Shown piece after piece: positions 5,592-37,851 of a stretch of DNA of 64,000 nt. The number at the start of each line of letters is the position of its first letter. The stretch's first letter is position 1. Under the pieces are notes generated by a model. That model searched no databases and had not been told where the DNA came from. It saw only the letters and a list, made by a program, of their open reading frames with translations. The translations under genes were made by a program, and so were the position numbers. Origin of the DNA: Erodium maritimum (Eukaryota; Streptophyta; Magnoliopsida; Geraniales; Geraniaceae); the NCBI GenBank assembly GCA_963921825.1, contig OY997591.1, positions 34,617,825 through 34,681,824 of the forward strand. The letters are read 5' to 3'.

Positions 5592-5598
5592 GATCAAG

Positions 5599-9917: not shown

Positions 9918-10223
9918 ATGGCGAGCCAGGACAGCGTCAAAGTTTTTGACCCCAGGGCAGAGCGTCGTTGCGGACGAAGGGGACCTTGTATTATCCCGAA
10001 GCCAGCCCGCCGTATTCGAAGGAGGGTGAATGCTTATGAACATGGTCAACATGTTCAGCCTCCGCCTGAGGTCAATATGATAGCTGAAGAACATGTGCAA
10101 CATGTTCAGCCTCCGCCGCCTGAGGTCAATCTGTTCAATCCCCAAAAGCCAGTACTAGAGCAAGACGATCATGATGCAGTGATAGCTGCGTTGTTGAAGG
10201 AATTTGGGCAGGAGATAAAGTAA
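9918..10223 (+). CDS. Small unidentified protein with internal repeats (array start)
   Basis: A 101-codon frame. Residues 15-36 are Arg-rich and basic (CGRRGPCIIPKPARRIRRR). Residues 41-75 hold a duplicated unit, HVQPPPEVN then HVQPPPPEVN. The C-terminus is acidic and helical (AVIAALLKEFGQEIK). After the TAA at 10221, in the +1 frame, a second copy of that C-terminal block follows (GVIAGLFKEFEQDLK) and ends at 10319. So either the gene lost its last third by a frameshift, or the stop is real and the tail is a relic. I do not recognise the family. It has the same orientation as the array that follows. Codon-like repeat structure favours a real gene. Confidence 0.5.
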   Translation: MASQDSVKVFDPRAERRCGRRGPCIIPKPARRIRRRVNAYEHGQHVQPPPEVNMIAEEHVQHVQPPPPEVNLFNPQKPVLEQDDHDAVIAALLKEFGQEIK

Positions 10224-10319
10224 GAATGTTCTCAGCAAAGAAGAAAAAGAGGAGCGGGATGGAGTAATTGCCGGCTTATTCAAGGAGTTTGAGCAAGACC
10301 TTAAGAATTTTCGGCATTG
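10224..10319 (+). pseudogene. Frame-shifted repeat of the C-terminal block of the 9918 gene
   Basis: Read in the +1 frame relative to 9918, this encodes SKEEKEERDGVIAGLFKEF and stops at 10317-10319. It parallels DDHDAVIAALLKEFGQE just upstream, so the C-terminal helix was duplicated and then put out of frame, or the true stop lies here and the annotated stop is a mutation. Confidence 0.45.
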
Positions 10320-10830
10320 ACTATTTTCTACTATTAGTTATTATTATTTCTTAGTATGGATGACATTATTATTATGACTTGGATTGAGTTTATTAGTATT
10401 ATGACTTTGAATGAATGATTTTGTTATGTATGTATGAATTTCTTGTTATGTATGACTACTATTATGACTTGGACAATGAGTTTATTATGTATGTATGAGT
10501 TTATTGTTGTAGTTTTAATTTGTGTGGTCCCTCGCGGTAAAGAATTTGATAAATTAGTTCATCTCTCTAGTTAGGGGTGCATGAATGTCTCGATCGTCTT
10601 ACAATTATGGTGTATCGAGATACAATATACACTCGTGCCTCTATCGATCGACTAATATTGTAGAGAATCAGACCATTTTAGTTTGGGAATGGATATGTGT
10701 ATCTCGATCGGAGTATTTCGGTGTGCCGATCGAGGAATACAGTGTAACACATTTTGCATGCTTTTATGACAATCAACCCATCCAATCTATGATGGGAACA
10801 CACACTGATCGGACCGGAGGGATTGATGGA
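10320..10830. other. Intergenic: AT-rich repeats and CGATCG cluster
   Basis: 10320-10510 is a loose repeat of TATTATGACTTGGA and TATGTATGA phrases. 10585-10740 has four CGATCG hexamers. The apparent frame at 10585-11001 is low quality and overlaps the C1 promoter, so it is not called. Confidence 0.5.
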
Positions 10831-10840
10831 GAATATATTC
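10831..10840. promoter_or_regulatory. Array palindrome, C1 promoter
   Basis: GAATATATTC followed by C, preceded by GGGATTGATGGA. It is the same palindrome as at 11688, 12622 and 15051. A CAATAAATA box lies about 67 bp downstream at 10898, then C1. Confidence 0.5.
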
Positions 10841-11020
10841 CTTCTCACATACCTAGACGCACTTCACGTGACTACACCCATATTCCACTAATTTTTCCAA
10901 TAAATATGCATCTTCCCCTCCTCTTCTTCACTTCACATTACCTTGCTACTAAACAGAAATCATGTGATATTCACTCATCAATCCCTTATACCCACCACTG
11001 AAATAATTTCCCATGATCCG

Positions 11021-11224
11021 GAACATTGTAGGAGGATGGTGAAATTTCAGAAAATGAAGAATGCGCTATTTAGGATACAAGTGAAGGTTGAGTAGATGAT
11101 AGAAGAGCTGAGTACGGTGGACAGACCGGGATGGACAATCGTCGACCATAGAAAGGCGGATGAATTCGTGGAGCAGCTTCTTGTCCTTGAATACTTCATA
11201 GTGACATTCACATCATCGGGATGA
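11021..11224 (+). pseudogene. Array gene C1 (type I)
   Basis: Type I copy of the array family. Readable from 11021, with an in-frame ATG at 11036 (MVKFQKMKNALFRIQVK). It aligns with RMMEFQTMKTCLLKIQVK in C5 and RMMKFQSIKIGLLKI in C9. An in-frame TAG at 11087-11089 interrupts it, then the frame continues to TGA at 11222 with the type I tail LLVLEYFIVTF (compare LLMDLEYLENFI in C5). The N-terminal ~18 codons seen in C5 and C9 are lost or degraded. Predicted all-helical, no known domain. Probably a pseudogene. Confidence 0.5.
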
Positions 11225-11687
11225 TTAGAGGGTGATGAAGCAAGTTTGTTTGTTTTCTATTGCAAAAGTAGGTATCGAAAAGCAGACCACAATTTTGCAG
11301 CATGTGTGGGTCTGTGTTGTAATAAGTAAGGTTGACGTGTAATGAATGAATGTTCAATATGTGTAATGAATGGATTTTTACAATGACTGTGTGATAATGT
11401 TACACTGCGTAGCCCAATGGCCTATACAGATACGACAATCGGGAAGGGTTCAGGTTACGTGTGTATGAAGAAAACTTGTGTATCTCAATCGTCTAGACTA
11501 CCCAGACGATCTTGTATACTACCATTTTAGACTATCGGTTATCCTACATAGACGATCGGTAAGTAATATGGATGTTTTGTGGGTTTTTTTATTTCACTCA
11601 CGGGGCGGGAGAAGGAGTGAGTGACCAGAAGTGATGGATGATAAGGGGGATTGATAGGCTCACTTTATATCTTCTTAGGGGAGGCAA
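11225..11687. other. Intergenic between C1 and C2
   Basis: 3' flank of C1 and distal promoter of C2. Contains GATCG-rich phrases (for example CAGACGATC) and GGGGGATTGATAGGCTC just before the palindrome at 11688. No gene seen. Confidence 0.45.
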
Positions 11688-11699
11688 GGAATATATTCC
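11688..11699. promoter_or_regulatory. Array palindrome, C2 promoter
   Basis: Perfect GGAATATATTCC, extended to the 16-bp palindrome AAGGAATATATTCCTT. A TATATAAA box is at 11758-11765 (70 bp on) and the C2 ATG at 11861. Confidence 0.6.
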
Positions 11700-11757
11700 T
11701 TTTCTTCTCACCTCTTCACCTTATCCATCAACCCCCACAACCACCGGTCACCCACAC

Positions 11758-11765
11758 TATATAAA
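11758..11765 (+). promoter_or_regulatory. TATA box of C2
   Basis: TATATAAA, 96 bp before the C2 ATG, in pyrimidine-rich context. The leader carries AATAGTCATCCAG before the ATG, a phrase echoed before C3, C8 and C10. Confidence 0.65.
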
Positions 11766-11860
11766 TGAAGACAAGGCCCTGCTCTACTCTGTACCCCCAA
11801 CCTTAATTCCCCCTATTTATTCCTCCGTCCGGTTATACACAAATCAAATAGTCATCCAGA

Positions 11861-12223
11861 ATGAATCCTTTGTCTCCAGCCGAGAGGACTTTGGCGATAT
11901 GCTGTCGGGATCTCGTGCAAGAGAGACTGTCGAGGTATCAGTCGGATAAGACTGAGCTACTGGCCCTCATAGCTGAAACGGCACGGCGGATAGAGAATGT
12001 TAGTAATGTCCCCCGACATGTCCTTAATTTGATGGAGGAAATGAATGCCAAACTTGATGAGTTTGATCGGGAGGAAGAGAGGCACATGCTGTATTGTCAG
12101 TTATTAACTTTTGTCCTTCTCGTTAGGGCATGTTTTAATAACGTTCTTATATGCACTCTGAAGTATCTTTTTATCAGCTATTTGTATTCTGAACCTTATT
12201 TTGAATATGTATTTCGTTTTTGA
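11861..12223 (+). CDS. Array gene C2 (type II), small helical protein
   Basis: A 120-codon frame starting in the conserved context AGAATG. The first ~84 residues are the type II family: MNPLSPAERTLAICCRDLV, then QSDKTELLALIAETARRIE, then NVPRHVLNLMEEMNAKLDEF and an acidic EEERHML end. They align with C3 along the whole length. The last ~36 residues are hydrophobic (LLTFVLLVRACF, then YLFISYLYSE) and correspond to C3's stop and 3' UTR read in a shifted frame. So the conserved protein probably ended near residue 85 and the tail is read-through, although as written it would add a membrane-like segment. Heptad-like Leu/Ile spacing suggests a helical hairpin or coiled coil. Family not recognised; function unknown. 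Good TATA box and shared palindrome upstream. Confidence 0.6.
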   Translation: MNPLSPAERTLAICCRDLVQERLSRYQSDKTELLALIAETARRIENVSNVPRHVLNLMEEMNAKLDEFDREEERHMLYCQLLTFVLLVRACFNNVLICTLKYLFISYLYSEPYFEYVFRF

Positions 12224-12621
12224 CATTGTTTATTGTGAACTTTCTTTTGAATATTTGTATTCTGAACATTCTGTTGACAAATCGGATTTTGGTTATTGTT
12301 TTTATTAATCTCGATCGTCCGTGAAATCACATCACTATTTACAGGTTATAAGAATGTTTAAGATGTCTAATGAATGGATGTTATTTATTTTTAACGAACT
12401 GCATATACCGATCGTGCCATTTAGAAAAGACAATCGAGAAGATCTTGTTTTCTTCAGTAACAAAAACGACGATCGGATCTGTATATACCGCCGATCGATC
12501 AAACAAATGGGTACGGTAAACCAGTTTTTCTGTATCTTCCACATTCTTGGTAACCGGACTAACCTAACATGAAGGATGAATGTATGTATGGTCACAGTGG
12601 ATGTCTCCTTTAGGAAGGAAA
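12224..12621. other. Intergenic between C2 and C3
   Basis: Holds CGATCG at about 12313, 12408, 12469 and 12492, and the phrase AGAATGTTTAAGATGTCTAATGAATGG, which recurs before C4 near 13700. Overlapping opposing frames here are chance. No gene called. Confidence 0.45.
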
Positions 12622-12633
12622 GGAATATATTCC
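12622..12633. promoter_or_regulatory. Array palindrome, C3 promoter
   Basis: Perfect GGAATATATTCC after GGAAGGAAA. The TATATATGAA box is at about 12776 (154 bp on) and the C3 ATG at 12879. Confidence 0.6.
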
Positions 12634-12878
12634 ATGTTAAAGTGAAATATAATTAGGTCAAAACCTACTCACCTCTCTACCCCCTTCTTCCTCGGTTCCT
12701 ACACCTTCTTCAGCCATTTTATTTGGACGATCGAGGAAACAACTGAATGCATACTACTTCGTCAGCCACCTTCACTATATATGAATACACACTCCCACTT
12801 TCATTTTACTCCCTTCATACTCTCATCTCTTAGCTACCCCTCCCTTCCCTTTCTCCACAAGTCCTATATTCATCCAGA

Positions 12879-13178
12879 ATGGACCCAAACATAGGCGTGT
12901 CCCCAGCTGAGAGGGTGAATATAGAGCATTGTAGACTTCTCATTTGGGAGAGTATCTTGCGGTGTCAGTCGGCTAAGGCTGAGCTACTAGTGGTCCAAGA
13001 TGGAGCGACACAGCAGATGGAGAATTGCAGGAATGCCCCCAGAGAGGTACTGGCGGCACAATTTAGGCGTCTTGAATCATTCATGGGGAAATCGAAAATA
13101 AAACTTGATGCGTATAAGCAGGAGAAAGCAGAAGCATTGTTCATATTGCCACTTTGTGAATTTTCTATTTCTCGGTAG
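12879..13178 (+). CDS. Array gene C3 (type II), intact small helical protein
   Basis: The best-preserved array gene: 99 codons, ATG in the context CCAGAATGGAC, stop TAG at 13176. Residues 1-13 are MDPNIGVSPAERV. A helix with RLLIWESILRCQSAKAELL follows, then a Gln/Met-rich turn with Cys-Arg-Asn, then APREVLAAQFRRLESF and a Lys-rich stretch (KSKIKLDAYKQEKAEAL). The end is short and hydrophobic (FILPLCEFSISR). No signal peptide, no zinc site, no catalytic motif seen. Family resemblance to C2 and C4 is clear: SPAER start, Q-S-x-K-x-E-L-L and LDxxxxEE blocks. Function unknown. TATATATGAA box about 100 bp upstream. Confidence 0.65.
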   Translation: MDPNIGVSPAERVNIEHCRLLIWESILRCQSAKAELLVVQDGATQQMENCRNAPREVLAAQFRRLESFMGKSKIKLDAYKQEKAEALFILPLCEFSISR

Positions 13179-14002
13179 GATATGTGTTAATAACGTTATG
13201 GTTTGCTGTAATACCATTATTTATGAGTTTTTTCATTAGTGTTCTGCATTGTATGTTAACTATCAACGTTGGTTATCCGTTAATATTATTCAACTATTCT
13301 GCACTTTATGTTTCATATGGTTGTTCCTCTCAATTAGTATTAGAGTATGATCCGATCGGTTTATGTAGTTGTCGATCGACCTATCGTGCATGCATGTGAT
13401 GTGACCTAACAATGCATTTCTTTTGAGCAATCAAGACTTCTCGATCATATAGGTGTATTATACGATCTAGCCGTATTGTATATGACTGAGTAATGGCATG
13501 CTTTATGAGGTCTGTCCACACCCTCCCTGTCTATCAGCCTTGATGTCATATAAATTGGAAGATGCTATATATGATCAACGAAGACTATTGTCACAATTAA
13601 CCCGATATTATGGTTAGCTTACACGCAGCTTCATATTTTGTAACTAATGGTGTTAGGGTTAAGTAAGGTTTATGTGTAATGATTGAAAGTTAGGAGGTCA
13701 TATAAATGTTTAAGATGTCTAATTAATATATGTTATCGATCGGATATTGAAGATAAACTTAGTACGCCGATCGATACTTCCATAACAGACAAGCGGTGAG
13801 ATCTTTTTTTGTGACGTATCACGAGCTATCATAATACCCGATGGTCCATACTAGAATCCGATCGTTAAATAAACTGGATTTTTTTGCCACAGTTTGTCGT
13901 ATCTTTCACATGGCTAGTAAATGGAATGATGTGACCACCCTGACCTGAACACCCATGATTGATGGATGGATGGTCACAGTTTATGTCTTCTTGGGAAGGC
14001 AA
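13179..14002. other. Intergenic between C3 and C4, CGATCG-rich
   Basis: AT-rich with CGATCG at about 13353, 13372, 13737, 13769 and 13858. AATAACGTTATG just after the C3 stop matches the C2 and C4 3' flanks. A GTTTAAGATGTCTAATTAAT phrase at about 13708 repeats that near 12357. No gene seen. Confidence 0.5.
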
Positions 14003-14014
14003 GGAATATAATCC
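14003..14014. promoter_or_regulatory. Array palindrome, C4 promoter (one mismatch)
   Basis: GGAATATAATCC, one base off the perfect palindrome, after TTGGGAAGGCAA. The TATA-like TATATTATATAA lies at 14109-14120 and the C4 ATG at 14186. Confidence 0.5.
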
Positions 14015-14185
14015 ATGTTACCAATTCTAGTCAAAGCAAATATGAAAACCTACTAACCTCTTCACCTTTTCCTCTTCGGTTCCTACACCTTCTTCAGCCA
14101 CAACTCCTATATTATATAACTACAAACTCAACTCATTTCATTTACCTTGTTTTTCCGATCGACTCCTCAAATTCCATAACGTAGA

Positions 14186-14460
14186 ATGGAGCCGGATACC
14201 ATTATGTCCCCAGCTGAGAGGGAGAAGTATGAAATTTTTCGAAGAGCCGAGGAGGATAGGTTGTTGAGGTTCGAGGCACGTAAAGTTGAAATATAGCCCT
14301 CCGAGCTAAAGCGTCAAAGCGGGTGGACAAGATTAGGAAGGTCCCCAAAGGGGAATTAACAACACAGTTTAAACGTGCCTGCAAATTATGGGAGTCACAT
14401 ATATGCAGATGGATGCGTTGGTTCAAGAAGAACAGCAGAAGCATGAAGAGAGGAGAGTTA
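14186..14460 (+). pseudogene. Array gene C4 (type II), frameshifted
   Basis: Starts as the family does: ATG in AGAATGGAG, then MEPDTIMSPAEREKYEIFRR and EARKVEI, then TAG at 14294. Type II similarity goes on in other frames: a block with GELTTQFKRACKLWES (compare EVLAAQFRRLESF in C3), then QMDALVQEEQQKHEE (compare KLDEFDREEERH in C2). At least two frameshifts separate the three blocks, so it is a pseudogene. Note that SPAER, the most constant part of type II, is intact. Confidence 0.6.
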
Positions 14461-15050
14461 TAAGGATTGAAAATAACCTCTAAAGAGACAAGGAGATAAA
14501 AATATTGAAGAAGAGATAAGAACAAAAAACTATTGAGTGGAATCATATATAAATACACAGGAGAGAGACAGTGAAAAGATAAGTACAAAAAAAGTTAACT
14601 GACGTGAGCGTTAGGGTTTGTTGTTATAACGTTATTTATGAGCTTTTTCTGTAGTTTTCTGCACTTTATGTTCACTATGTATGTGGTTCGAATTGGTATT
14701 ATTCTAGTCATCTCAAGTTTATGTTTTACTCAACCGTCTTGTGTTCGTATGGATACATGACTACACGTCTCGATCGGTTTGTGTTTGTATGAATACCTGA
14801 TTCACTGTCTCGATCATTCTACGTGCATGCATGTCATGGATCGTTCTCGTTTTGTGTTTGACATTAACGATCGGTTGTTTGTTTACTGCGATCAGGAACA
14901 TACACGCCCTGATCTACAACAACTACTTCATATATCGTCCTTGCAACAATGGTATGTCATGTCAAGGCATCCCTTCTGGCATAGGCTTAGAGGGGACCTA
15001 TGATAGGCACACTAAACAGAGGGGGGGGGGGGAAGCACTTGGGAAGGGAA
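14461..15050. other. Intergenic between C4 and C5
   Basis: 3' flank of C4, with a repeat of GTCTCGATCGGTTTGTGTT-like phrases (14740-14830) and CGATCG at about 14771 and 14868. A 12-G run lies at 15021-15032. No gene called. Confidence 0.45.
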
Positions 15051-15062
15051 GGAATATATTCC
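15051..15062. promoter_or_regulatory. Array palindrome, C5 promoter
   Basis: Perfect GGAATATATTCC within GAAGGAATATATTCCTTTCC, the most extended copy. CAATAAATA follows about 55 bp on, and the C5 ATG is at 15158. Confidence 0.6.
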
Positions 15063-15157
15063 TTTCCCCCTGGTCAACTCTATAACACCAAAACAATGAC
15101 AATTGTCAATAAATATCTTACCTCATAACCATACCACACCTCACTTCCCCATAAAGA

Positions 15158-15397
15158 ATGGCACCAAACCACGAGGATGATGCAGCACAAGAGCGGAAAG
15201 TTCAACACCAGTAGAGGATGATGGAATTCCAAACAATGAAGACATGTCTACTTAAAATCCAAGTAAAGGCGGTAGAGATGAGGGCTGAGATTTCGCAAGC
15301 TGACAGAGGGGATTCTACTTTGTACAAGCTCCTCATGGACCTTGAATATCTTGAAAACTTCATAGAGGCATTCATATTCGAAGGCACAATGTTGTGA
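15158..15397 (+). pseudogene. Array gene C5 (type I), one in-frame TAG
   Basis: The most complete type I copy: 79 sense and stop codons from ATG (AAAGAATGGC) to TGA at 15395. The N-terminus is MAPNHEDDAAQERKVQHQ, then TAG at 15212-15214, then MMEFQTMKTCLLKIQVKAV, a polar stretch with DRGDS, and a hydrophobic, aromatic tail (LLMDLEYLENFIEAFIF). C9 has CAG where this copy has TAG, so a single C-to-T change made the stop. Without it the product would be about 79 residues, all helical. No known domain. Promoter palindrome and CAATAAATA box upstream. Confidence 0.55.
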
Positions 15398-15440
15398 AAT
15401 GTTCGTAACTAGGTTTTCCAATATGTATGATTTTATTTTT
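15398..15440. other. 3' flank of C5
   Basis: Short AT-rich flank before the duplicated segment at 15441. It holds TTCGTAACTAGG and a T-rich run. No feature. Confidence 0.4.
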
Positions 15441-15711
15441 AATCACTATGTTTAGAGGTTATTGTGATATGGTACTGCAGGTCATCTCGATCGTCGACGG
15501 TTCTCTGAAGCGTGGTTACCATTACAATTTAAACTTATGATCTTGTGGTTAGGGTTAGGCTTAGGATTTGTTCCGATCGATAACACAATAAGCCCGATCG
15601 TCCGTTTAGGGTTAGTGTCTCGGATGGGAAATAAGGATTGCTTATCTGGGCAGGCTTTATGTCCTAAGCCTGGAGGAAGCCTATGATGGGAATATTACAC
15701 TGGAAAGGGAA

Positions 15712-15723
15712 AGAATATATTCT
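15712..15723. promoter_or_regulatory. Array palindrome, first copy in tandem duplication
   Basis: AGAATATATTCT, a perfect palindrome with the outer G:C pair changed to A:T on both sides. No gene follows directly; the next unit is its own duplicate. Confidence 0.5.
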
Positions 15724-16014
15724 TTAAGGATCACATTGAACAAAAATTCAATCACTATGTTTAGATGTTATTGCGATATGGTACTGTAGATCATATCGAT
15801 TGTCGATGGTTCTCTGAAGCGTGGTTACCATTACAATTTAAACTTATGATCTTGTGGTTAGGTTTAAGGTTTATTCCGATCGATAACACAATTACCCCGA
15901 TCGTCCGTTTAGGGTCACGGTCTCGGACGGGAAATAAGGATTGACTATCCGGGCAGGCTTTATGTCATAGGCCTGAAGTAAGCCTATTATGGGAATATTA
16001 CATTGGGAAGGGAA

Positions 16015-16026
16015 AGAGTATATTCT
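16015..16026. promoter_or_regulatory. Array palindrome, C6 promoter
   Basis: AGAGTATATTCT, one mismatch from the copy at 15712. CAATAAATA is at 16059, 44 bp on. The C6 ATG is at 16136. Confidence 0.5.
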
Positions 16027-16135
16027 TTGAGGATCACATTGAACAAAAATTAAATTATCAATAAATATCATACCTCACAACAACCACATTCACTTCATTA
16101 AACTTCATCTATTCAACAATGTCATTCTCTGTATA

Positions 16136-16315
16136 ATGGCCAATCAGAACCAGGCTAACCTTGTAGCTGGGATTGAGAACTTGTTGGGGATGGAGGAAGT
16201 GAAGGTCACTATGGAGAGGAAAAAACTGAAGGCCCTACAGCTGATGGAGACGGTTAGGGCGGTCGAAGAGACTTTTCATCTTATGTTACAAGTATCCAAG
16301 AAGTATTGGATTTAA
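16136..16315 (+). CDS. Array gene C6 (type III), 59-residue frame
   Basis: A 59-codon frame: MANQNQANLVAGIENLLGM, then VKVTMERKKLKALQLMETV and an end with FHLMLQVSKKYWI. Charged and helical. After the TAA, a shifted frame continues with LNALEELIDNQVV, which matches EELIQSQVT in C7, so the ancestral protein was about 85 residues and this copy is cut by a frameshift near 16290. A 5-codon upstream frame starts at 16119. No domain recognised. It lies after the duplicated promoter. Confidence 0.45.
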   Translation: MANQNQANLVAGIENLLGMEEVKVTMERKKLKALQLMETVRAVEETFHLMLQVSKKYWI

Positions 16316-16780
16316 CCGAAGTACACCTCAATGCTTTAGAAGAGCTAATAGATAATCAAGTGGTTTAGTTAAATCGTATTTTTGATAATGGGTCTAATTT
16401 TCTGTATCGGTTAATATTGACATTTTCAGTACAATTTATGAGTCGATCGTCTACGTAGTATACCAATCTACATATTTTCAATTTCGATCTTATTGTTATC
16501 AGTCACGATCATTTGTTTGTTCACAACGATCGGTACATTGTGCCGCCCGATCGGCATATTTGGACAACATAGAGGCACACATTTAAAGAGACCATATAAA
16601 TCGATCGAGGCTACGCTACTCGATCGACTTTTTTGTACCATTCAAAATTCAAAGAAGTATGATCATATTTGCGTGTAACGGTCGGCTGATTACCGTTCAG
16701 ATTTCAGAAAACTGAGAATAGTTTGTCTTTAAGTTATAGGCATAGAGGGGTCCTACGATGGGACCTTTTCTTGGGAAGGA
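16316..16780. other. C6 tail relic and intergenic, CGATCG-rich
   Basis: 16316-16380 carries the out-of-frame tail of C6. Then five CGATCG hexamers lie between 16443 and 16625. The 61-codon frame at 16493 has no family similarity and is not called. Confidence 0.45.
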
Positions 16781-16792
16781 CCAATATATTAT
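16781..16792. promoter_or_regulatory. Degenerate array palindrome, C7 promoter
   Basis: CCAATATATTAT after TTGGGAAGGA. The core AATATATT survives. The conserved phrase GGGGTCCTACGATGGGACC lies 30 bp upstream, and CAATAAATA at 16824. Confidence 0.4.
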
Positions 16793-16914
16793 TTCAAAGT
16801 TTTACTAAAAGTCTTCCAATGATCAATAAATACCAAACTCCACCAACACCCACCACATCCTTCACTCAATATTCCACAAATACAATATTGTGAAGAATTG
16901 CTCACCTTACCCAG

Positions 16915-17160
16915 GATGCCATTGTCGCAGGGTATGACAACTTATTGAGTATGAAGAAACTGAAGTCTTCTATGTAGAGGAACAAGAAGAAGGCAGTACA
17001 GCTCATGAAGAAGGTTAGGGCGGCTAGAGGAAAGGAATGTTCATGTAATGTAACGGAGCTAAAGAATTATTGGATGAAGCGGATGTCATCATTGGAATAG
17101 TGGAAGAGCTTATACAATCTCAAGTGACTATTTTAAACCGTCTTCGTTGCTGTGGAGTCT
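16915..17160 (+). pseudogene. Array gene C7 (type III), broken
   Basis: Reads DAIVAGYDNLLSMKKLKSSM, TAG, RNKKKAVQLMKKVRAA, then frameshifts to EADVIIGIVEELIQSQVTIL. It parallels C6 block by block (LVAGIENLLGMEEVKVTM, RKKLKALQLMETVRAV, NALEELIDNQVV). The start codon at 16916 is one base out of the family frame. Pseudogene. Together with C6 it defines type III. Confidence 0.5.
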
Positions 17161-17491
17161 AATTCTCTGTATTCAAGCATGTTTTAATTTTCTGTACTCA
17201 AGGACGTCTTTAGTAATGCCGATCGAACAAACAATGTTTTATTTAAATGTTATCGATCGTCTATAAATTTTATCGATTTTCCTAATGGGACTAGCCATAA
17301 AGCCGATCGTCTAACATTTGGGAAAGGAAGGATTAAATTAATTAACTAACTCATTCCTTCTTTATTCCTAATTCAAATCAAATCACATTCGAAAACCAAC
17401 TCACCTCTTCACCTTCCTTCACCCACCCACCCACTCTATATAAACACACCGACTCTTCATCATCTTTATTACACACATCAGATAGTCGAGA
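17161..17491. other. C8 promoter region with TATA box
   Basis: CGATCG at about 17220, 17254 and 17303. The palindrome site is decayed: GGGAAAGGAAGGATTAAATTA at about 17319-17340, with TTCCTT downstream. A TATATAAA box at 17437-17444 in a C-rich tract, and ATCAGATAGTCGAG ahead of the ATG at 17492, as before C2 and C10. Confidence 0.5.
17437..17444 (+). promoter_or_regulatory. TATA box of C8
   Basis: TATATAAA after a CCCACCCACCCACTC tract, 48 bp before the conserved ATG at 17492. Confidence 0.6.
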
Positions 17492-17805
17492 ATGTACCCC
17501 AACAAAAAACTGAGATGATATCATCCCTTCTACTTGATGCCGAGAAGAGCTTGTTGAAGTATCAGACCAAGAGGAACAGTTTGCAAACCAGCCAAGTACT
17601 TGCGGAACGCATGATGGCTGTAGAGATATTAGACCACGAAGGGGAATACACAGATGATTATAGAAGTGTTTTCTTAGTATTTCATGAAACGAAAATGCTC
17701 TTGGATGCCGTGGACAAGCTTGAAGCACTTCAGCACACCATACTTTCGCGTTTAAGTAGCTTGAGATTAATAGGTTTCTGTATCCAACAAGTGTCTGAAA
17801 TCTAA
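17492..17805 (+). pseudogene. Array gene C8 (type II-like), start frameshifted
   Basis: The family start at 17492 (AGAATGTACCCCAAC) reads MYPNKK and then stops after a 2-nt frame offset. The main frame opens at an inner ATG at 17515 and runs 96 codons to TAA at 17803. It holds LLLDAEKSLLKYQTKRNSLQ, the counterpart of RLLIWESILRCQSAKAELL in C3. Then come MMAVEILDHEGEYTDD and a Leu-rich helix with DKLEALQHTILSRLSSLRL. It may still be translated from 17515, so a shortened functional protein is possible. No known domain. Confidence 0.5.
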
Positions 17806-18987: not shown

Positions 18988-20675
18988 TGTTAGTCTTAGT
19001 GCCCGTAGTTCAATCCTAAATGTCCAAATGTACATATCATCGTTAGCAATAAAATTAAAGAGGCTTTATATTACTTATGTGTTGGAGTAATATATCGACG
19101 TGTGCTCTGATCTATGCCCACCATGCGAATAGAACCATAGATCGAGATAGATCACACTCGATGGGTCCCTAGTCAACAAAGCTTCACTAGAAGCGACTAG
19201 TATGAAAGATGGCTCTTTATAGCTTACGTTCTGTTAGTCATTGGAATGGGATTCCGGAGTCTGATCATAGATATCATGTGGGACATGATATTGGACGACC
19301 CGCCCTGAATATGTGCCATAGATTAAGTCATGAACATATTCAGTGTCGTAGCTTGTCATGTATCCTTAGACCAAGGAGTCTTTGTGATCGCTATGTAGTC
19401 AACAACTGAGTTTGACCTGAGCCTAACGTTGTCCGTAACAGGGCTTCCATAACGGCCATGATTGGCTTGGGGACGGGCTACATGAGTGACACAAAAGACG
19501 GCTAAGGGATTTATCCCTCATACTGAGGTATGAGAAAGATATCGGTTCTCGGCCGCTTGATCGAGAGTGACTGAAAGAATAGCATGGCCATGCACATGAT
19601 ATTGGGTATCATATCTTTAGTCATCTCACATATCAAGGAACATTGATTGAGAATAATAAGGATGACGGCTCTATGCCTTATCTCAATCAGGATATCGGAG
19701 ATAAAAGGATAATGACAGGGATGACGGAAAGGTTAGAATCGACAGGGTCGATTCGTTATGCAGTGTCAGGCAATACTAAAGTCTCGTTAGTTGCCACTTA
19801 AATAGGATCAAGTAAAATGGGATTTTACGTTGATCTATTGACATGCATAAACCTAAGGGTCACACCGGAGGATGAAACTCATTGACACATTTATGGAGAA
19901 TGGCCAAAAGGGAGTTGTCTCGGGACATGACCAAAACTGGGTTTTGGGTCATGTGCCCGTAAGTGAATAGGACTTTACGGATCGAGACAAGGCTTGGAGT
20001 TTTGGCATTGATTGCGTCGGATAATGTTGGACATTTCCGGTATGGAAGGCTTGGAGGCGATGAGCGAATCACGGGACCTCGTTGGAAATGGCCACGGGCC
20101 ATGTTCCAAGAGGCCCATGAAATGCCCATGCAACCAAGGCCCATGGAACTAATTAATCAAGTCTTGATTAATTAGTACTAAACAAGCAAGACAAGGATTA
20201 AGGTATTGGTGATTCACCACCTAACCCAATCTTGTCTTGCCATACTTTGTCCTATTTACACCTTACTTGACACCATACTTGTCCCATGCCTTTAGTTGGA
20301 CAAGTATGGGTTTTGTTATGTTTAAGTCATCTTTTTTCAACATAACAAACACAAGACAAGAATAGGAAACACAACTTCTCTCTCCCTTCCCTTGCAATTT
20401 CGGGTTTGGCAAGCTCCCACCTCCATTTTTGTGTTCTTGAGTCCTCAAAGAGAAGAACTACGTGGCTTTGATTCCCATGTGGATACGTAGGCGTCTTGGA
20501 GACTCAAGCCAATCATTCGTTACCCGGTGTTCTTGTTTTGGTAAGAACTAGTGCTGAATTTTTCTCTTGTGAATCCATTCTTTGTTAGTTGTTTCATGGT
20601 TTTAATCGTCTCTTGGTTTTCCTTCAGTTTCTGCTGCGAGTTGGTTCATCTCCAACCCTACCTCGAGACCCAACA
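18988..20675 (+). repeat. E2 5' LTR (1688 bp)
   Basis: TGTTAG ... CCAACA. Same length as the solo LTR at 36159-37846. A conserved 66-codon frame inside (19209) occurs in all copies, but follows simply from their youth. A perfect palindrome lies at 20149-20175. Confidence 0.93.
20149..20175. repeat. 27-bp perfect palindrome in the copia LTR
   Basis: CTAATTAATCAAG, one T, then CTTGATTAATTAG. Present in E3, E4 and E5 LTRs as well. It could form a hairpin in LTR RNA; its role is unknown. Confidence 0.8.
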
Positions 20676-20676
20676 G

Positions 20677-20689
20677 TGGTATCAGAGCC
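20677..20689 (+). other. E2 primer binding site
   Basis: TGGTATCAGAGCC one base after the LTR, complementary to initiator tRNA-Met. Confidence 0.92.
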
Positions 20690-22233
20690 GTGCTACCTTC
20701 GGGATTCACAAGACGGTGTTCAAAGTTTCGGTTTTGCTTGAAAGTTTCGTTTTTGGCGTGTTGTTTTGCTAAATTGTTTGATAACATGTTTTAAATACTT
20801 GTTTATGGATTTAATGCATGTAAAATGAATTTTCGAAAATTATTTCAAATCTGGAAATTTTGAAATTGTTTTTTTGATTTTTCGGGTCTCGGGAACGGGA
20901 CTCTCGGGGAGCCGAAACCGGGACCGAACGGGGCTCCGTTGGACGGAGCTAGGCCATGCATGACCATTGGATGGTTGATATGCCAAGGCTAAACCGTTTT
21001 GTTAGTTATGACGAGTTTGGAACCGTCATGACGAACTCGAAGATCAAATGTTCAAAAGTTTCATTTTTGAACGGTTTCGATAAACCGAGCATCAAAAAAA
21101 TTTCGAAACTTGGCTATTAATTAAAACCGGAAAATCACATGATGTTTGATAACATGCTTGTTTGATAACACGATGTGTGATGTGATGTTGGCATGGTGTA
21201 CATAATAGCCCCGAGCTCAATTTAATTATTTATCGCTTTTCACGGCCTGCGAGCCGTTAGTGTTAGCGTGTAATTATTCTTTCAAGGTGTGGTCGTCGAA
21301 CCACTTGTTTGTAATATTTATTTATTCCCGACCTGCGAGTCGTGTATTAAATTGTAATATTTTACTCAAGATGAAGAAAGGGCGAAAAGGTCATTTGGTG
21401 GCTTTTCGGCTGTTGGCTTCGGCTTGGAGTCGGTGGAGCTCAAGAAGCTAGTGGGAGTTAGTTTATGGGGCTATTATGTGCATATTTATCGCTTTATGCT
21501 TGGTTTAGTTTATGCATGATTAATTCTGTGTTTTAGAATTGCATGCTTAACTTTATTTACCGAGCATATCACCTCACATGCAAAGATAAAATTGGAATTT
21601 TAATCCTTGTGTGTGAACCCTTAGAACCGTCATTGCATTGGATGTAGTTGACGGGTTCAAAGGAAGAATTACATTGGATCTAATTTGAGGCATCATTGCA
21701 TTTGGAATGTAGTTGATGTGCTCATCGCATCTAGGATGTGTCAAAGTTTTAAACACAACCGGACAAGTAAAAACGGGTCATGTCCGATACCTCCCAATTA
21801 TCAACACCTTACTACCTCCCCGTCCTATGGGTGTCGTGCGCATGAGCGGAGCATCCATGGGAAAGCGGGGTAGTAGGTTTGGACGACATATGTGGGTGTC
21901 GTGCGCATTAGCGGAGCACCTACATAGTGACGGGCCATAGTTGAAAATTGGTGGACCCGACTACGATTCTCAGCCTGAGGTTGAGCTAGGGTAACAGATA
22001 GGGTAAGCCGTGTACATAAGTGCATACCCTAGCCAAGAGTCACATTGGATGTGATTGGATGGAGTCCTACCTACATAGCTCGATTAAGTGGTGAGCATTA
22101 GTTCAGCTTAATCGAGTGAATCAAGGATCTTGGTTTCAGATTCTAAAGGTTTAGAATTTATTGTTGGTGTTTAAGCTTGATCTTCATAAAATTTATTCAG
22201 TTTACTGATTGAATTTTATCTGTTGTAGATCAA
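20690..22233 (+). other. E2 untranslated leader
   Basis: Colinear with 194-1727 of E1 and about 90% alike by eye. No gene. Short open frames on both strands here are shared with E4. Confidence 0.75.
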
Positions 22234-22600
22234 ATGTCAAATTCAGCGAACATTAATAGTTTGTCATTAAAAACCATTCTTGACAGGGTCAAGCTAAATG
22301 GGACAAACTATTTGGACTGGTACAGAATTTTGAGGATAGTCCTCAAGTCTGAACGCAAAGAATATGTCCTTGACAAGGCTGTCTCTAAGACCATATCAGA
22401 GTTACATGAAGTGTCATTAACTGCTGAGAAGAATATCTCAGGGATCTGGGATCCAAGGATATTCTGATGGTCAACAAGGGAATTGGAAGTGGCAAGGGCT
22501 GGGCCCATGCGCACTTGGCAGGAAAGATGAGACACCTGAGAATGTCTGCTTCTACTCACAACAGCCTGGTCATTGGAACCGGGATTACAGGAAGTTCACG
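22234..22600 (+). pseudogene. E2 gag remnant with 136-codon deletion
   Basis: Begins like E1 gag (SLSLKTILDR ... KEYVLDKAV) and jumps to KTISELHE. Against E1 (1878-2291) this is a net loss of 408 nt, in frame. A frame break and stop follow at 22465 (DPRIF, stop). The zinc knuckle, in another frame near 22540-22592, reads C-F-Y-S ... H ... D-Y: its third Cys is Ser and its last Cys is Tyr, so it cannot bind zinc normally. E4 and E5 share the deletion, the stop and the Cys-to-Tyr change. Confidence 0.85.
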
Positions 22601-22603
22601 GCT

Positions 22604-22747
22604 GATCTGAAGAAGGGCAGTGGGACTGCGCCTTCATCAAATAGCCTGGATGATCTGAAGAAGGGCAGTAGGACTGCGCCTTCATCAGGAAACCTGGATG
22701 ATCTAAGGAAGGGCGGTGGGACCGTGCCTTCATTCGGTATTAACTCT
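22604..22747 (+). repeat. 48-bp triplicated coding repeat after gag
   Basis: Three 48-bp units start at 22604, 22652 and 22700 with GATCTGAAGAAGGGC or GATCTAAGGAAGGGC. E1 has one unit at the same place (about 2583). The triplication is shared with E4 and E5. Confidence 0.85.
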
Positions 22748-22942
22748 ATAGAGCTACATCTCTCTACTTCCAAAGATTCATGGGTATTAGATACCATGAC
22801 TGAATCTCACACATGCACTAATATATGGTGGCTGAAAGTAGGAGAGATTTGGAAAGCACGAAATGGACCTCAGAGTTGTGGGAACTGCTGTAGGATCCAT
22901 GAGTCTTGCTTTGCCAAGAGGCCTTGTCTTAGTATTGTATAA
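22724..22942 (+). pseudogene. E2 protease remnant
   Basis: Reads DSWVLDTMTESH where E1 has DSWVLDTGAESH, so the catalytic D-T-G is D-T-M. After KVGEIWKA the frame is lost relative to E1, and the integrase part resumes in another frame at 22863. E4 and E5 carry the same change and frame loss. Confidence 0.85.
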
Positions 22943-24099
22943 TTTATATTGCATACCTACTTTTAGTAGGAATATTATATCTGTATCCGTGTTTGACAAG
23001 GAAGGATATAATGTTAATATTGGAAATGGAGTTTTCAATGTTCTATGCAATGATATGTTTTATACCATTACTGACATGGTTGGAGGATTGTACATATTAG
23101 ATATGGGTAACAATGCCTCAAGTTCTATATATTCCGTTAATACCAAGAGGTCTAAATCCAACGATTTAAACCTAACTCTGTTATGGTACTGTCATTTGGG
23201 TCGCATAAACAAGAAGCGCCTATCAGCACTTCAGAAGTGCGGGCTTTCAGGTTCATTCGAATTCCATTCGATCGATAGGTGCAAGGTTTGTTTGATGGGA
23301 AAAATGACTAAAGTGCCCTTTATCGATCGCGATGAAAGGGCGGGTGAATTATTGGGGCTGATGCACTCGAATGTGTGTAGACCAATAAGTTCACTTGCCA
23401 GGAGGGGTTTTAGCTACTTTATCACATTTACTGATGATTACAGTAAATATGGTTATGTCTATTCGGTGAGACATAAGTCTGAAGCTTTTGATAAATTCAA
23501 AGAGTTTAAGACTATAGTAGAAAACCAGCTCGACAAAGGTATTAAGGCACTTCGATTGGATCGAGGTGGAAAATACTTGACCACAGAGTTATTAGATCAT
23601 CTAAAAGAGAATGGGATCCTTTTGGAATGGACTCCTCCTAGGTCACTGTAGTTGAAAGGTGTAGCCAAACGGAGAAATCGGACATTGTTAGACAATGGTC
23701 TGTTCCATGATTAGTTGGACTGATCTCCCAATCTCTTTTAGGGGTTTTGCTCTAGAGATGACCGCATTCATAGTGAATCGGGCATCGACGAATGGTGTGG
23801 AAGGGACACCATTTTAAAAATGGTACGGGATGATGCCCGCTTTGTCCTTCCTAAAGATTTGTGGTTGCGAGGCTTATGTGAAACATTTGGTTTCGACTAA
23901 GCTCGAACCAAGATCTAAGATATGCAACTTCGTGTGGTATCCCAAAGCAACAAGGGGATACTATTTCTACAATCCCAGTGAGAACATCGTGTTCGTCGCT
24001 TGGGGTGGGGTCTTTATGGAAAAGAAGTTTTGTTTCCAAAGACGTCATTGGGAGGACTGTGCATCTCGAAGAAATTCAGGATGGTACAGATATGTCTAA
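22863..24099 (+). pseudogene. E2 integrase (decayed)
   Basis: The frame 22863-23651 (262 codons) holds the end of protease, the GAG-pre-integrase region (CHLGR ... CKVCLMGK) and the integrase core with FTDDYSKYG and LDRGGKYL. In E1 the zinc-like His reads CRLGH; here HLGR, so that His is lost. It stops after WTPPRSL, where copia elements normally read on into an NGVAERRNRTLL-type block; that block follows out of frame. The C-terminal part lies at 23830-24099 (CGCEAYVKHL, WYPKATRGYYFYNP). Lesions match those of E4 and E5. Confidence 0.85.
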
Positions 24100-24187
24100 A
24101 CCAATTGACAACCCAGTAGAAAGGAGCCAGAGATTGTCGTAGAGTGAGAACCAATTCCTGTTACAATTCCGGAAGGTCCAAGGCGAT

Positions 24188-25094
24188 TTGAAAGGGTCAA
24201 TCTTCCACCTCCAAGATATGGTATCCGGAGGTGACAATGAAGTCATGGTGGATCATGATGATCCAGCCACCTTTCAAGAAGTCGTGGATGGGCCCGACTC
24301 CGAGTTATGGCTGGGAGCCATGAGGGAGGAAATGCAATCCATGTCGGACAACCGAGTCTGGGAAACGGTTGATCCCATCAATGGTGTAAGAACCATCGGA
24401 TGCAAATGGATCTTCAAGGTGAAGATGGACATGGACAACAACCCTCTGACCTACAAAGCTCAACTGGTGGCGAAAGGTTATAGGCAGATCCAATGGATTG
24501 ACTATGAGGAAACCTTCTCCCTAGTGGCTATGGTCAAAATCGATCCAAATTCTTCTTGACATAACTGCGTATCATAATTACGAGATATGGCAAGTGGATG
24601 TCAAAACCGCTTTCCTAAATAGAAATTTGACTGAGTACCTTTGTATGTCTCGGCCCAAAGGTTTTGACGATCCGAAGAATACGGGAAAGATTTATAAGTC
24701 GTTGAAATCCATTTATGGATTGAAACGAACTTCTCGGAGTTGGATCCTTCGTTTTGATGAAGTTGTAATTGGATTTGGCTTAATCAAGAACGAGGATGAA
24801 TCTTGCGTTTGTAAGAAGGCTAGTGGGAGCAAGATTACCTTTCTGGTTCTCATTGAAAACGACATCACAACCTTGCACGAGACTAAAGCTTGGTTGAGGA
24901 AGTGTTTTTCAATAAAGGACTTAGGCGATGCTTCTTATATCTTTAGGATTAAGATATGTAGAGATCGCACCAAGAGGGTCTTCGATTTAAGTCAGGGAAC
25001 CTATGTGAACAAGGCATTGAGTAGGTTCTTAATGATCGATTCAAAGAAAGGACTCTTACCCACTAGTCATGGCATTCATCTCAGCAAGACTTAG
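24188..25094 (+). pseudogene. E2 reverse transcriptase lacking its catalytic box
   Basis: Two frames, 24188-24559 and 24594-25094, joined by a frame break, carry copia RT (RVT_2) blocks: VDPINGVRTIGCKWIFKVK, YKAQLVAKGY, DVKTAFLNRNL, KSIYGLKRTSRSW. The sequence then runs FLVLIENDITTL. In copia RT a Y-V-D-D box and a few hydrophobic residues follow FLVL, so about seven codons including both catalytic aspartates are missing. E4 has exactly the same gap. The enzyme cannot polymerise. Confidence 0.87.
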
Positions 25095-25349
25095 TGTCCT
25101 AAGACACCTGATGAGCTAAAAAGGATGATGAGAATCTTATGCGCCTGGGGGTAGGATCGATCATATATGCCATGACATGTATGAGACCAGACGTCTCGTA
25201 AGCCTTATGTTGTACCAGTAGACATCATTCTAACCCGGGGGAAAGATGATGTTGAACTAGTCGTCGAAGGATGAGTAGACGCTAGTTTTCCAAGACAAAT
25301 CCAGATGACTTTAGAAGTCAATCAGGACATGTGTTTACGCTGAATGGAA

Positions 25350-25611
25350 GAGCTTTAGCTGGGAGAGCTTAAAGCAAGATATCATTGCCGAATCTACGAC
25401 AGAGGCCAAGTACATGGATGCTGCAGAGGCAGCTAAGGAGGCTATGTGGATTTGCAAATTCATGGCAGGGCTGGGTGTAATTAAAAACCCATCCAGCCCG
25501 GTGAATCCATCTTGCGACAACACAAGGGCCATTGCGCAAGCTAAAAGCCTAGATCGTATAACAAATCCAAACATGTACTGCGGCGTATCCACCTCATCAG
25601 ATAAATACTGA
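25350..25611 (+). pseudogene. E2 RNase H remnant
   Basis: Reads ESTTEAKYMDAAEAAKEAMW then NPSCDNTRAIAQAK, the conserved copia RNase H blocks with the E and D residues. It stops at 25609, short of the usual HI(E) end. The segment between RT and here (25095-25349) is out of frame. Confidence 0.82.
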
Positions 25612-25751
25612 ACTGAGGTGAAGTGAAGATAATCGATATTGCAACAGATGATAACATAGCCAACCCTTTGACTACGGCAGTGTCACTGCCTGAACATGTT
25701 AGACATGTAAAGTCGATGGGGACATATTGGAGTTTAGATTGGAACTAGGGC

Positions 25752-25762
25752 AAGTGGGAGAT
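25752..25762 (+). other. E2 polypurine tract
   Basis: AAGTGGGAGAT directly before the right LTR; primes plus-strand DNA synthesis. The same tract precedes the LTR in E4 (39923-39933, minus). Confidence 0.85.
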
Positions 25763-26885
25763 TGTTAGTCTTAGTGCCCGTAGTTCAATCCTAAATGTCC
25801 AAATGTACATATCATCATCAGCAACAAAATTAAAGCGGCTTTATATTACTTATGTGTTGGAGTAATATATCGACGTGTGCTCTGATCTATGCCCACCATG
25901 CGAATAGAACCATAGATCGAGATAGATCACACTCGATGGGTCCCTAGTCAACAAAGCTTCACTAGAAGCGACTAGTATGAAAGATGGCTCTTTATAGCTT
26001 ACGTTCTGTTAGTCATTGGAATGGGATTCCGGAGTCTGATCATAGATATCATGTGGGACATGATATTGGACGACCCGCCCTGAATATGTGCCATAGATTA
26101 AGTCATGAACATATTCAGTGTCGTAGCTTGTCATGTATCCTTAGACCAAGGAGTCTTTGTGATCGCTATGTAGTCAACAACTGAGTTTGACCTGAGCCTA
26201 ACGTTGTCCGTAACAGGGCTTCCATAACGGCCAGGATTGGCTTGGGGACGGGCTACATGAGTGACACGAAAGACGGCTAAGGGATTTATCCCTCATACTG
26301 AGGTATGAGAAAGATATCGGTTCTCGGCCGCTTGATCGAGAGTGACTGAAAGAATAGCATGGCCATGCACATGATACTGGGTATCATATCTTTAGTCATC
26401 TCACATATCAAGGAACATTGATTGAGAATAATAAGGATGACGGCTCTATGCCTTATCTCAATCAGGATATCGGAGATAAAAGGATAATGACAGGGACGAC
26501 GGAAAGGTTAGAATCGACAGGGTCGATTCGTTATGCAGTGTCAGGCAATACTAAAGTCTCGTTAGTTGCCACTTAAATAGGATCAAGTAAAATGGGATTT
26601 TACGTTGATCTATTGACATGCATAAACCTAAGGGTCACACCGGAGGATGAAACTCATTGACACATTTATGGAGAATGGCCAAAAGGGAGTTGTCTCGGGA
26701 CATGACCAAAACTGGGTTTTGGGTCATGTGCCCGTAAGTGAATAGGACTTTACGGATCGAGACAAGGCTTGGAGTCTTGGGATTGATTGCGTCGGATAAT
26801 GTTGGACATTTCCGGTATGGAAGGCTTGGAGGCGATGAGCGAATCACGGGACCTCGTTGGAAATGGCCACGGGCCATGTTCCAAG
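25763..26885 (+). repeat. E2 3' LTR, truncated (last 565 bp missing)
   Basis: Colinear without net gaps with 18988-20110. It ends at CCAAG and is followed at once by C10 sequence. CCAAG occurs at the same place in both partners, so the deletion used 5 bp of microhomology. Confidence 0.92.
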
Positions 26886-27040
26886 TCAAGGAGGTACAGC
26901 TGATGGATGATCTTAGGGATGTCGACAGAGGGGGATGGACAACTGAAGACGAGCATAATGCGGATTTATTAATGTAGCAGCTTTAAGGCCTGGAACACAT
27001 AGTAGTGTCATTCACATATGAAGGATAAGAAGGCCGATCG
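26886..27040 (+). pseudogene. Array gene C10 (type I), right half
   Basis: Continues the type I family after the LTR break: (Q)VKEVQLMDDLRDVDRGGW, then ADLLM, TAG, QL, TAA, GLEHIVVSFTYEG and TAA near 27028. It matches C1 (VDRPGW ... LLVLEYFIVTF). About 45 nt of the gene, relative to C9, are missing between the halves. Apart from the insertion it has its own stops, so it was probably decaying already. Confidence 0.6.
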
Positions 27041-28099: not shown

Positions 28100-28108
28100 T
28101 AAATATTA

Positions 28109-37846: not shown

Positions 37847-37851
37847 AGCCC

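What the first reader, a model, noticed from the sequence alone, without database searches (positions are those of the whole stretch)
9918..27040. Array of about ten small paralogous genes of an unrecognised family
Between 9.9 and 19 kb, all on the plus strand, lie about ten related short frames (C1-C10) spaced roughly 0.6-1.4 kb. Three sequence types can be read: type I (C1, C5, C9, C10), type II (C2, C3, C4, and distantly C8) and type III (C6, C7). C3 (12879-13178) is intact and C2 nearly so; the rest are broken by single stops or frameshifts. Proteins are about 60-100 residues, helical, charged, without a domain I know. Start context (AGAATG), leader phrase (ATCAGATAGTC) and promoter are shared across types, so they were probably made from one ancestral unit and diverged in coding part faster than in promoter. 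A lineage-specific small-protein cluster is possible.
Basis: partly seen in the sequence, partly recalled or inferred. Interest (0 to 1): 0.75.

Follow-up and report, generated by a model that had tools for sequence, protein, structure and literature searches.

The report
Jumping gene carrying ten small genes
The row of about ten small related genes is the inside of a large plant-type transposon that exists in several scattered copies, and the gaps between its genes are studded with one exact six-letter DNA word (CGATCG) set at whole turns of the double helix, which looks like a docking array for an unknown protein.

Summary
In detail: ten frames of three related types lie at about 11.0-18.99 kb. 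C10 is split by a young Copia insertion, its 3' part lying at 26.88-27.03 kb. The interpretation (a host gene cluster) does not hold. The array recurs collinearly elsewhere in the same genome: three copies with most long segments 81-92% identical, and two more diverged. The element is ~12 kb; its left end is window base 8806, and the window copy lacks the last ~2 kb. Two copies have both ends located: one has an exact 10-bp target-site duplication and imperfect inverted ends (17/20), the other an 8/10 duplication. A right-end gene joins the two ends of a MuDR transposase without its core. That makes it a Mutator-like element (MULE). CGATCG occurs 37 times in the array (1.1 expected), never in a frame; 145 times in 61.1 kb inside copies against 5 in 54.7 kb outside. 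It is preferentially conserved in four of six copies and, pooled, spaced with a 10.3-bp period. Best reading: a MULE with an amplified family of helical-hairpin accessory genes and helically phased protein-binding sites, comparable to but not filed under VANDAL/VANC. The reader protein and the small proteins' function are not shown.

The parts
8806..8990 (+). Left end of the element (short imperfect inverted repeat, then terminal region)
   Evidence: Similarity to two other copies starts here and the flanks differ; third copy left end at L027:5797
9918..10223 (+). C0, 101-aa frame with internal repeats; leftmost gene of the element
   Evidence: open frame; related frames in three other copies, 77%, 35% and 33% identity
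11015..11224 (+). C1, type I frame, broken in this copy
   Evidence: matching open frames in three other copies
11861..12223 (+). C2, type II frame, 120 aa open
12879..13178 (+). C3, type II frame, 99 aa open; predicted helical hairpin
   Evidence: AlphaFold2 pLDDT 89.0, helices 9-51 and 55-98; 99-aa open counterpart in the C1:46 Mb copy
14186..14480 (+). C4, type II, broken in this copy
   Evidence: 97-aa frame in another copy, matched over its first 35 codons
15158..15397 (+). C5, type I, one premature stop in this copy
   Evidence: 79-aa open frame in the C3 copy; stop-free 60-aa part predicted as helical hairpin, pLDDT 85.3
16136..16370 (+). C6, type III, broken in this copy
16909..17165 (+). 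C7, type III, broken in this copy
17515..17805 (+). C8, distant type II, 96 aa open
18119..18370 (+). C9, type I, broken in this copy
   Evidence: 83-aa open frame in the C3 copy
18926..18987 (+). C10, type I, 5' part
   Evidence: an 83-aa open frame in the C2 copy matches the 3' part
18988..26881 (+). Foreign Copia LTR retrotransposon inside C10 (3' limit uncertain by about 6 bases); 42-43 bp of C10 present in three other copies are missing here
   Evidence: LTR pair 99.1% identical; gap between window 18987 and 26882 is 42-43 bp in three other copies
26880..27028 (+). C10, 3' part
27390..27390 (.). Point where the window copy is truncated; other copies continue about 2.1 kb to the right end, with a MuDR-derived minus-strand gene
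9901..18987 (.). 37 CGATCG sites, all between frames (four more at 9145, 9177, 27035, 27302)
   Evidence: 37 against 1.14 expected in dinucleotide shuffles
11678..11699 (+). Palindromic promoter box of C2
12612..12633 (+). Palindromic promoter box of C3
13993..14014 (+). Palindromic promoter box of C4
15041..15062 (+). Palindromic promoter box of C5 (exact match)
16005..16026 (+). Palindromic promoter box of C6 (a duplicate lies at 15702-15723)
18744..18765 (+). Palindromic promoter box of C10

Best explanation
SHOWN: the array is the body of a dispersed ~12-kb transposable element with the marks of a Mutator-like element (MULE): a 10-bp target duplication, short imperfect inverted ends, and a right-end gene made of the N-terminal domain and zinc knuckle of a MuDR-type transposase without the core. 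It carries a leftmost gene (C0) and about ten small single-frame genes, related within three types, each with its own TATA-like upstream region; the proteins are ~80-120 aa, and C3 and part of C5 are predicted as two-helix hairpins. Its non-coding DNA is studded with exact CGATCG palindromes, 1-6 upstream of each gene, preferentially conserved in four of six copies, and spaced, when pooled, at multiples of ~10.3 bp. INFERRED: the units arose by serial duplication of one ancestral unit. A sequence-specific protein docks cooperatively on CGATCG on one face of the helix, switching on all the element's genes together and/or keeping the element free of DNA methylation. The small proteins are accessory factors of the element, multiplied and diverging quickly. 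Transposase is supplied in trans. The copies sampled are now mostly dead. Rough confidence by step: mobile element 0.95; MULE 0.85; CGATCG is a protein-binding site 0.8; its purpose is activation or anti-silencing 0.5; an element-encoded reader 0.3.
For: Dispersal: one C3-unit query gave 17 matches (self included) on eight contigs of a 763-Mb genome at 67-100% identity. At six of those loci I read the neighbourhood; five are collinear over several units. Ends: left end shared by window, C3 and C2 copies with different flanks; right end shared by C1:60, C1:46 and C2 copies; TSD TGCTCCATGT on both sides of the C2 copy and inverted ends 17/20. MuDR link: right-gene N-terminus 41% identical over 91 aa (E 1e-18) to that of a neighbouring MuDR-type transposase gene with PF03108, PF10551 and SWIM; zinc knuckle 9/17; the N-terminus is present in four copies. 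Coding: each unit matches an open frame in at least one copy. Motif: 37 against 1.14 expected, one-mismatch variants together near background (30 against 26.5); 145 in 61.1 kb inside (ten stretches of four copies) against 5 in 54.7 kb outside; kept at 27/33, 25/35, 9/15 and 7/10 in four copies against 3/14, 9/24, 1/10 and 0/6 for other non-coding hexamers with two CpGs. Phasing: best of all periods 5-25 bp is 10.4 in the window (P 0.0002 for the 10.2-10.7 band, 0.0014 over all periods) and 10.3 in 112 pooled pair clusters (0 of 20000 jitters as strong; 19 clusters at 19-22 bp, none at 23-29).
Against: In the C3 copy and the C9 fragment the sites are not preferentially kept (18/39 and 1/9). In the C2 copy ten coding two-CpG hexamers are kept at 9/10, as well as CGATCG. 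Phasing is not significant alone in the C3 (P 0.185) and C1:12 (P 0.24) copies and weak in C1:46 (P 0.04); over all periods only C2 (P 0.006) reaches 0.05. One of 17 control hexamers (AACATG, 27 pairs) scores higher than CGATCG. Two one-mismatch words are above expectation (CGATCA 9 against 4.6, CGACCG 3 against 0.9). pN/pS between copies is not below neutrality (P 0.067). The transposase core, DNA-binding and SWIM parts were found in no held copy by tblastn. The exact TSD is from one copy; the other copy with both ends has 8/10, its exact-match scan having found none. No expression, methylation or binding data.
Confidence: 0.7

Rival explanations
1. A lineage-specific cluster of host small-protein genes formed by tandem duplication.
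For: Tandem units with their own promoters, helical proteins, fast divergence.
Against: The ordered array recurs at several unlinked loci with sharp ends, a target-site duplication and a MuDR-derived end gene.
Confidence: 0.03
2. The CGATCG sites serve a host transcription factor (for instance a GATA-type zinc finger) that the element uses to be expressed in one tissue; no anti-silencing is involved.
For: Sites lie upstream of all ten small genes. CGATCG is listed as a GATA-like promoter element in a rice study (PMC10390317, passage), and CGATCG-containing words are frequent upstream of rice sperm-cell genes (PMC3224587, passage).
Against: A host factor would usually tolerate near matches; one-mismatch variants are together near background. 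The GATA link is a label in one paper, untested here.
Confidence: 0.4
3. The element is a Pack-MULE: it captured a host gene once, and the array is amplified host gene pieces without a role for the element.
For: Pack-MULEs lack transposase and carry host fragments (PMC6446971, passage); no selection on the frames is shown.
Against: No host parent gene was identified, but only one genome search was answered. Each unit matches an open frame in some copy, and each keeps CGATCG sites upstream.
Confidence: 0.12
4. CGATCG is a by-product (mutation bias, simple GATC repeat, or copy-paste of spacer DNA) without a reader.
For: Some sites are inherited through duplications such as 15438-16055.
Against: Exact word, absent from frames, confined to the element, conserved above other non-coding two-CpG hexamers in four copies, phased at the helical pitch when pooled.
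Confidence: 0.07

Closest known systems
VANDAL elements with the VANC anti-silencing system (VANDAL21, VANDAL6; Arabidopsis)
   Same: Mutator superfamily; short degenerate or no inverted ends (PMC6446971, passages); short DNA motif concentrated in non-coding parts, where single-base changes drastically reduce binding (PMC5735166, passages).
   Different: Motif CGATCG, not YAGTATTAY or AGTTGTCC/AGTTGTAC; palindromic and with two CpGs; dispersed and helically phased instead of in tandem repeats; accessory genes are about ten small frames (two predicted helical hairpins), with vanB/vanC likeness not compared; no transposase core in the held copies.
MuDR and other autonomous MULEs
   Same: TSD length, end repeats, transposase-derived N-terminal domain and zinc knuckle.
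   Different: Core of the transposase missing; array of about ten accessory genes.
Pack-MULEs
   Same: Non-autonomous MULE with internal genes.
   Different: No host parent gene found so far; cargo is a promoter-bearing multigene array.
Homotypic, helically phased binding-site clusters (recalled examples: EBNA1 dyad sites, plasmid iterons)
   Same: Pairs about two helical turns apart.
   Different: Spread over a ~12-kb transposon; reader protein unknown.

Membership tests
Mutator-like element (MULE), non-autonomous | Target-site duplication of 8-11 bp | tested here: met
   10 bp exact in the C2 copy; 8 of 10 in the C1:60 copy; window and C3 copies lack the right end; left end of the C1:46 copy not found
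Mutator-like element (MULE), non-autonomous | Terminal inverted repeats (short or absent in some groups) | tested here: met
   17 of 20 bases between the two ends of the C2 copy
Mutator-like element (MULE), non-autonomous | Relation to a MuDR-type transposase | tested here: met
   Right-end gene: N-terminus 41% over 91 aa, zinc knuckle 9/17; Plant_all_beta E 1.7e-6, 28.7 bits against a cutoff of 30
Autonomous MULE | Transposase with DDE core (PF10551) | tested here: not met
   tblastn with the neighbouring core, DNA-binding and SWIM parts found only that gene itself in all held loci and the window; it lies outside the right end of the C2 copy
VANDAL/VANC system | Short motif concentrated in non-coding regions of the element | tested here: met
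VANDAL/VANC system | Motif in tandem repeats | tested here: not met
   In the window sites are dispersed; only the 303-bp duplication at 15441-16055 and a 40-bp repeat at 14739-14815 with one site are tandem
VANDAL/VANC system | Genes vanA, vanB, vanC | tested here: inconclusive
   No VAN protein was compared; C0, C2, C3 and open counterparts of C3 and C5 have no Pfam match above cutoff
VANDAL/VANC system | Protein that binds the motif and removes methylation | not testable with these tools
   needs binding and methylation data
Pack-MULE | Fragments of a host gene inside | tested here: inconclusive
   One genome search answered; no host parent identified

The most novel reading that the evidence does not exclude
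A second, independently evolved, sequence-specific anti-silencing system of a plant transposon: the element multiplies a family of small helical proteins, one or more of which (or the core-less MuDR-derived protein) read helically phased CGATCG palindromes and keep the element unmethylated. The C3 copy, which may have lost this protection, has lost 21 of 39 sites, 17 of them by a single CpG-type transition.
Probability: 0.25. Interest if true: 0.85.

Novelty: new variant of a known kind. Interest (0 to 1): 0.64.

Why it matters
A transposon that carries its own array of regulatory binding sites together with accessory genes has, in the papers I looked into, one plant example, VANDAL/VANC. Here the cis part can be read from sequence alone: an exact palindrome with two CpGs, absent from coding parts, conserved in four of six copies and set at the pitch of DNA. 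That makes a definite prediction about a cooperative reader and a definite experiment (probe binding, half-turn shifts). A MULE with about ten promoter-bearing paralogous accessory genes would be an unusual gene content and a case of multigene-family birth and death inside a transposon.

Tried and rejected
Homologues: C3 alone and two alignments against 5.8 billion proteins gave no hit at E <= 10. Viral contigs and prokaryote genomes gave no relative; the promoter box gave 0 viral contigs. PDB by sequence: best E 0.026. Foldseek against PDB and viral models: no match at E <= 0.001; the rows listed are mostly generic helical hairpins. Rfam: none. So a viral origin has no support here.

Coding constraint: within-array pN/pS 0.62-1.26 and between copies 0.72. 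The deeper pairs C1-C5, C1-C9, C2-C8, C3-C8 and C4-C8 are below a simple neutral simulation (P 0.000-0.038 of 500) that ignores transition bias. Between copies, with the observed transition bias, nothing is significant (which left out C4 and the C1:12 and C9 copies). I therefore rest coding status on open frames, not on dN/dS.

Within-array conservation of CGATCG between paralogous spacers (16 of 22 counted in both directions over 6 alignments; other hexamers 648 of 2562) is biased where a weak alignment is anchored by the sites themselves (C5up-C10up, 4/4), so I prefer the between-copy test.

Losses by CpG-type transition are 17 of 21 in the C3 copy, but also 3 of 6, 5 of 10, 3 of 6, 3 of 3 and 3 of 8 in the C2, C1:60, C1:46, C1:12 and C9 copies; so only the C3 copy stands out, and the C9 fragment does not show this decay.

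First hexamer control tested only 3 other words, all overlapping CGATCG, and is uninformative; one search replaced it (17 words, 1 above CGATCG).

The MuDR gene next to the C2 copy was considered as the element's own transposase; it lies about 0.7 kb outside the right end and has one CGATCG in its stretch (L015:4827), so I take it as a different element.

Passages were seen of PMC3224587, PMC10390317, PMC3224702, PMC3906199, PMC10398659, PMC5735166 and PMC6446971; no paper was read whole.
Full report
1. The observation. Ten related plus-strand frames lie at about 11.0-18.99 kb. They fall into three types, and types I and II are weakly related to each other. C2 (120 aa), C3 (99 aa) and C8 (96 aa, from a downstream ATG) are open here; the others are broken. 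A palindromic upstream box occurs 7 times on the plus strand, in the array only, with none expected. The leader phrase occurs at C2, C8 and C10. C10 is cut by a Copia element with LTRs 99.1% identical, and 42-43 bp of C10 present in three other copies are missing at that point.

2. What it is. The only answered genome search, with the C3 unit, gave 17 matches on eight contigs. I read the surroundings of six of the matching loci. The array is collinear at C3:40.8 Mb, C2:23.4 Mb and C1:60.7 Mb (segments 69-92% identical, most long ones 81-92%), and in more diverged form at C1:46.4 Mb and C1:12.8 Mb; C9:29.2 Mb is a rearranged fragment. The similarity starts at window 8806 in three places with different flanks. 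The window copy stops at 27390, whereas other copies go on for about 2.1 kb to a common right end. Both ends were located in two copies. In the C2 copy the ends are inverted repeats (17 of 20 bases) flanked by the 10-bp direct repeat TGCTCCATGT. In the C1:60 copy the flanks match at 8 of 10 bases; the exact-match scan found no repeat of 7 or more there. The C2 copy spans C2:23,430,335-23,447,494 and contains about 5.4 kb of foreign DNA, so the element is about 12 kb.

3. The right-end gene. On the minus strand of the right 2 kb a frame joins an N-terminal domain (Plant_all_beta, E 1.7e-6, just under the curated cutoff) to a zinc knuckle. The N-terminus is 41% identical over 91 aa to that of a MuDR-type transposase gene next to the C2 copy (E 1e-18). 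That gene, in several frame pieces, has PF03108, PF10551 and SWIM; the knuckles match at 9 of 17 positions. By tblastn the N-terminus is in four copies (C3, C2, C1:60, C1:46), while the core, DNA-binding and SWIM parts are in none of the held stretches except that gene itself. With the TSD length (8-11 bp for MULEs, PMC6446971, passages) this makes it a non-autonomous Mutator-like element.

4. The small genes. Each unit matches an open frame (ATG to stop, 55 codons or more) in at least one copy (for C4, C6 and C7 only part of the frame was used as query): for example type I frames of 79 aa (C5) and 83 aa (C9) in the C3 copy, 83 aa (C10) in the C2 copy, and a 99-aa C3 counterpart in the C1:46 copy at 62% protein identity. 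So I take the frames as genes of the element, broken afterwards at different places in different copies. AlphaFold2 gives helical hairpins for C3 (pLDDT 89.0) and for the stop-free 60-aa part of C5 (85.3). No database relative was found. Substitution-level constraint is not demonstrated: pooled pN/pS 0.72 against a neutral mean of 0.80, P 0.067.

5. CGATCG. The word occurs 37 times in 9901-18987, against a mean of 1.14 and a maximum of 5 in 200 dinucleotide shuffles. None lies in a frame. One-mismatch words together are near background (30 observed, 26.5 expected; CGATCA 9 against 4.6 is the largest excess). All ten units have 1-6 sites upstream. Inside, ten stretches of four copies hold 145 in 61.1 kb (foreign insertions not removed); ten stretches taken as outside hold 5 in 54.7 kb. 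Window sites are kept in the C2, C1:60, C1:46 and C1:12 copies at 27/33, 25/35, 9/15 and 7/10. Other non-coding hexamers with two CpGs are kept at 3/14, 9/24, 1/10 and 0/6, and non-coding hexamers without CpG at 0.51, 0.55, 0.32 and 0.42; coding two-CpG hexamers in the C2 copy are kept at 9/10. In the C3 copy (18/39) and the C9 fragment (1/9) the sites are not preferentially kept. In the C3 copy 17 of 21 losses are single CpG-type transitions; in the C9 fragment 3 of 8. The C3 pattern fits a copy that was methylated, but methylation was not measured.

6. Phasing. Seven of 36 neighbouring distances in the window are 19-22 bp (six without a recent duplicate; 0.71 expected, P 5e-5). Over distances up to 130 bp the best of all periods from 5 to 25 bp is 10.4 (P 0.0002 for the 10.2-10.7 band, 0.0014 over all periods). 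Single copies, same band: C2 P 0.0003, C1:60 P 0.0045, C1:46 P 0.04, C3 P 0.185, C1:12 P 0.24; over all periods only C2 (0.006) is below 0.05. These copies share sites by descent. Grouping 180 pairs from the window and six copies into 112 clusters gives 10.3 bp and 0 of 20000 jittered sets as strong, with 19 clusters at 19-22 bp, 0 at 23-29, 6 at 30-34, 2 at 35-38, 9 at 39-43, 2 at 44-48 and 8 at 49-55; some clusters may still be related by descent. Of 17 control hexamers one (AACATG, 27 pairs) scores higher. Sites on one face of the helix are the usual sign of cooperative binding (established knowledge).

7. How it may work. A protein docks on CGATCG and acts on all the element's genes at once, by activation, by keeping methylation away, or both. 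The nearest known system is VANC on VANDAL elements: short motifs in non-coding regions, single-base changes drastically reducing binding, loss of silent marks (PMC5735166, passages; PMC10398659, passages). This element differs in motif and arrangement, and no VAN protein was compared, so it is not filed there.

8. Verdict. The gene-cluster reading is replaced by a Mutator-like transposon with an amplified array of small accessory genes and a helically phased CGATCG array: a new variant of a known kind, with an unknown reader and unknown protein function.

Noticed in passing
window 27602-28107: A ~500-bp near-palindrome (79% self-complementary) shortly right of the truncated element, probably a foldback/MITE-like element.
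   Followed up: no
L015:3091-5610 (minus strand): A MuDR-type transposase gene in several frame pieces (N-terminal domain, DBD_Tnp_Mut, MULE, SWIM, zinc knuckle), about 0.7 kb outside the right end of the C2 copy; possibly another MULE or a domesticated gene.
   Followed up: partly
window 37846-38178 and 52092-53307: Arrays of 38-59-bp tandem repeats, with similar-looking repeat-coded frames in flanking loci (L010, L014, L016, L020, by eye); look like satellite-like parts of LTR elements.
   Followed up: no
window 4001-8000 and 32001-34000: CpG observed/expected falls to 0.03-0.10 in LINE relics, against 0.74-0.85 in the array: strong contrast in deamination history.
   Followed up: no
L024:9633 and L021:9442: Additional type II frames (97 and 128 aa; 28-29% identical to C3) in the diverged C1:46 and C1:12 copies, so the number of units seems to vary between copies.
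   Followed up: partly
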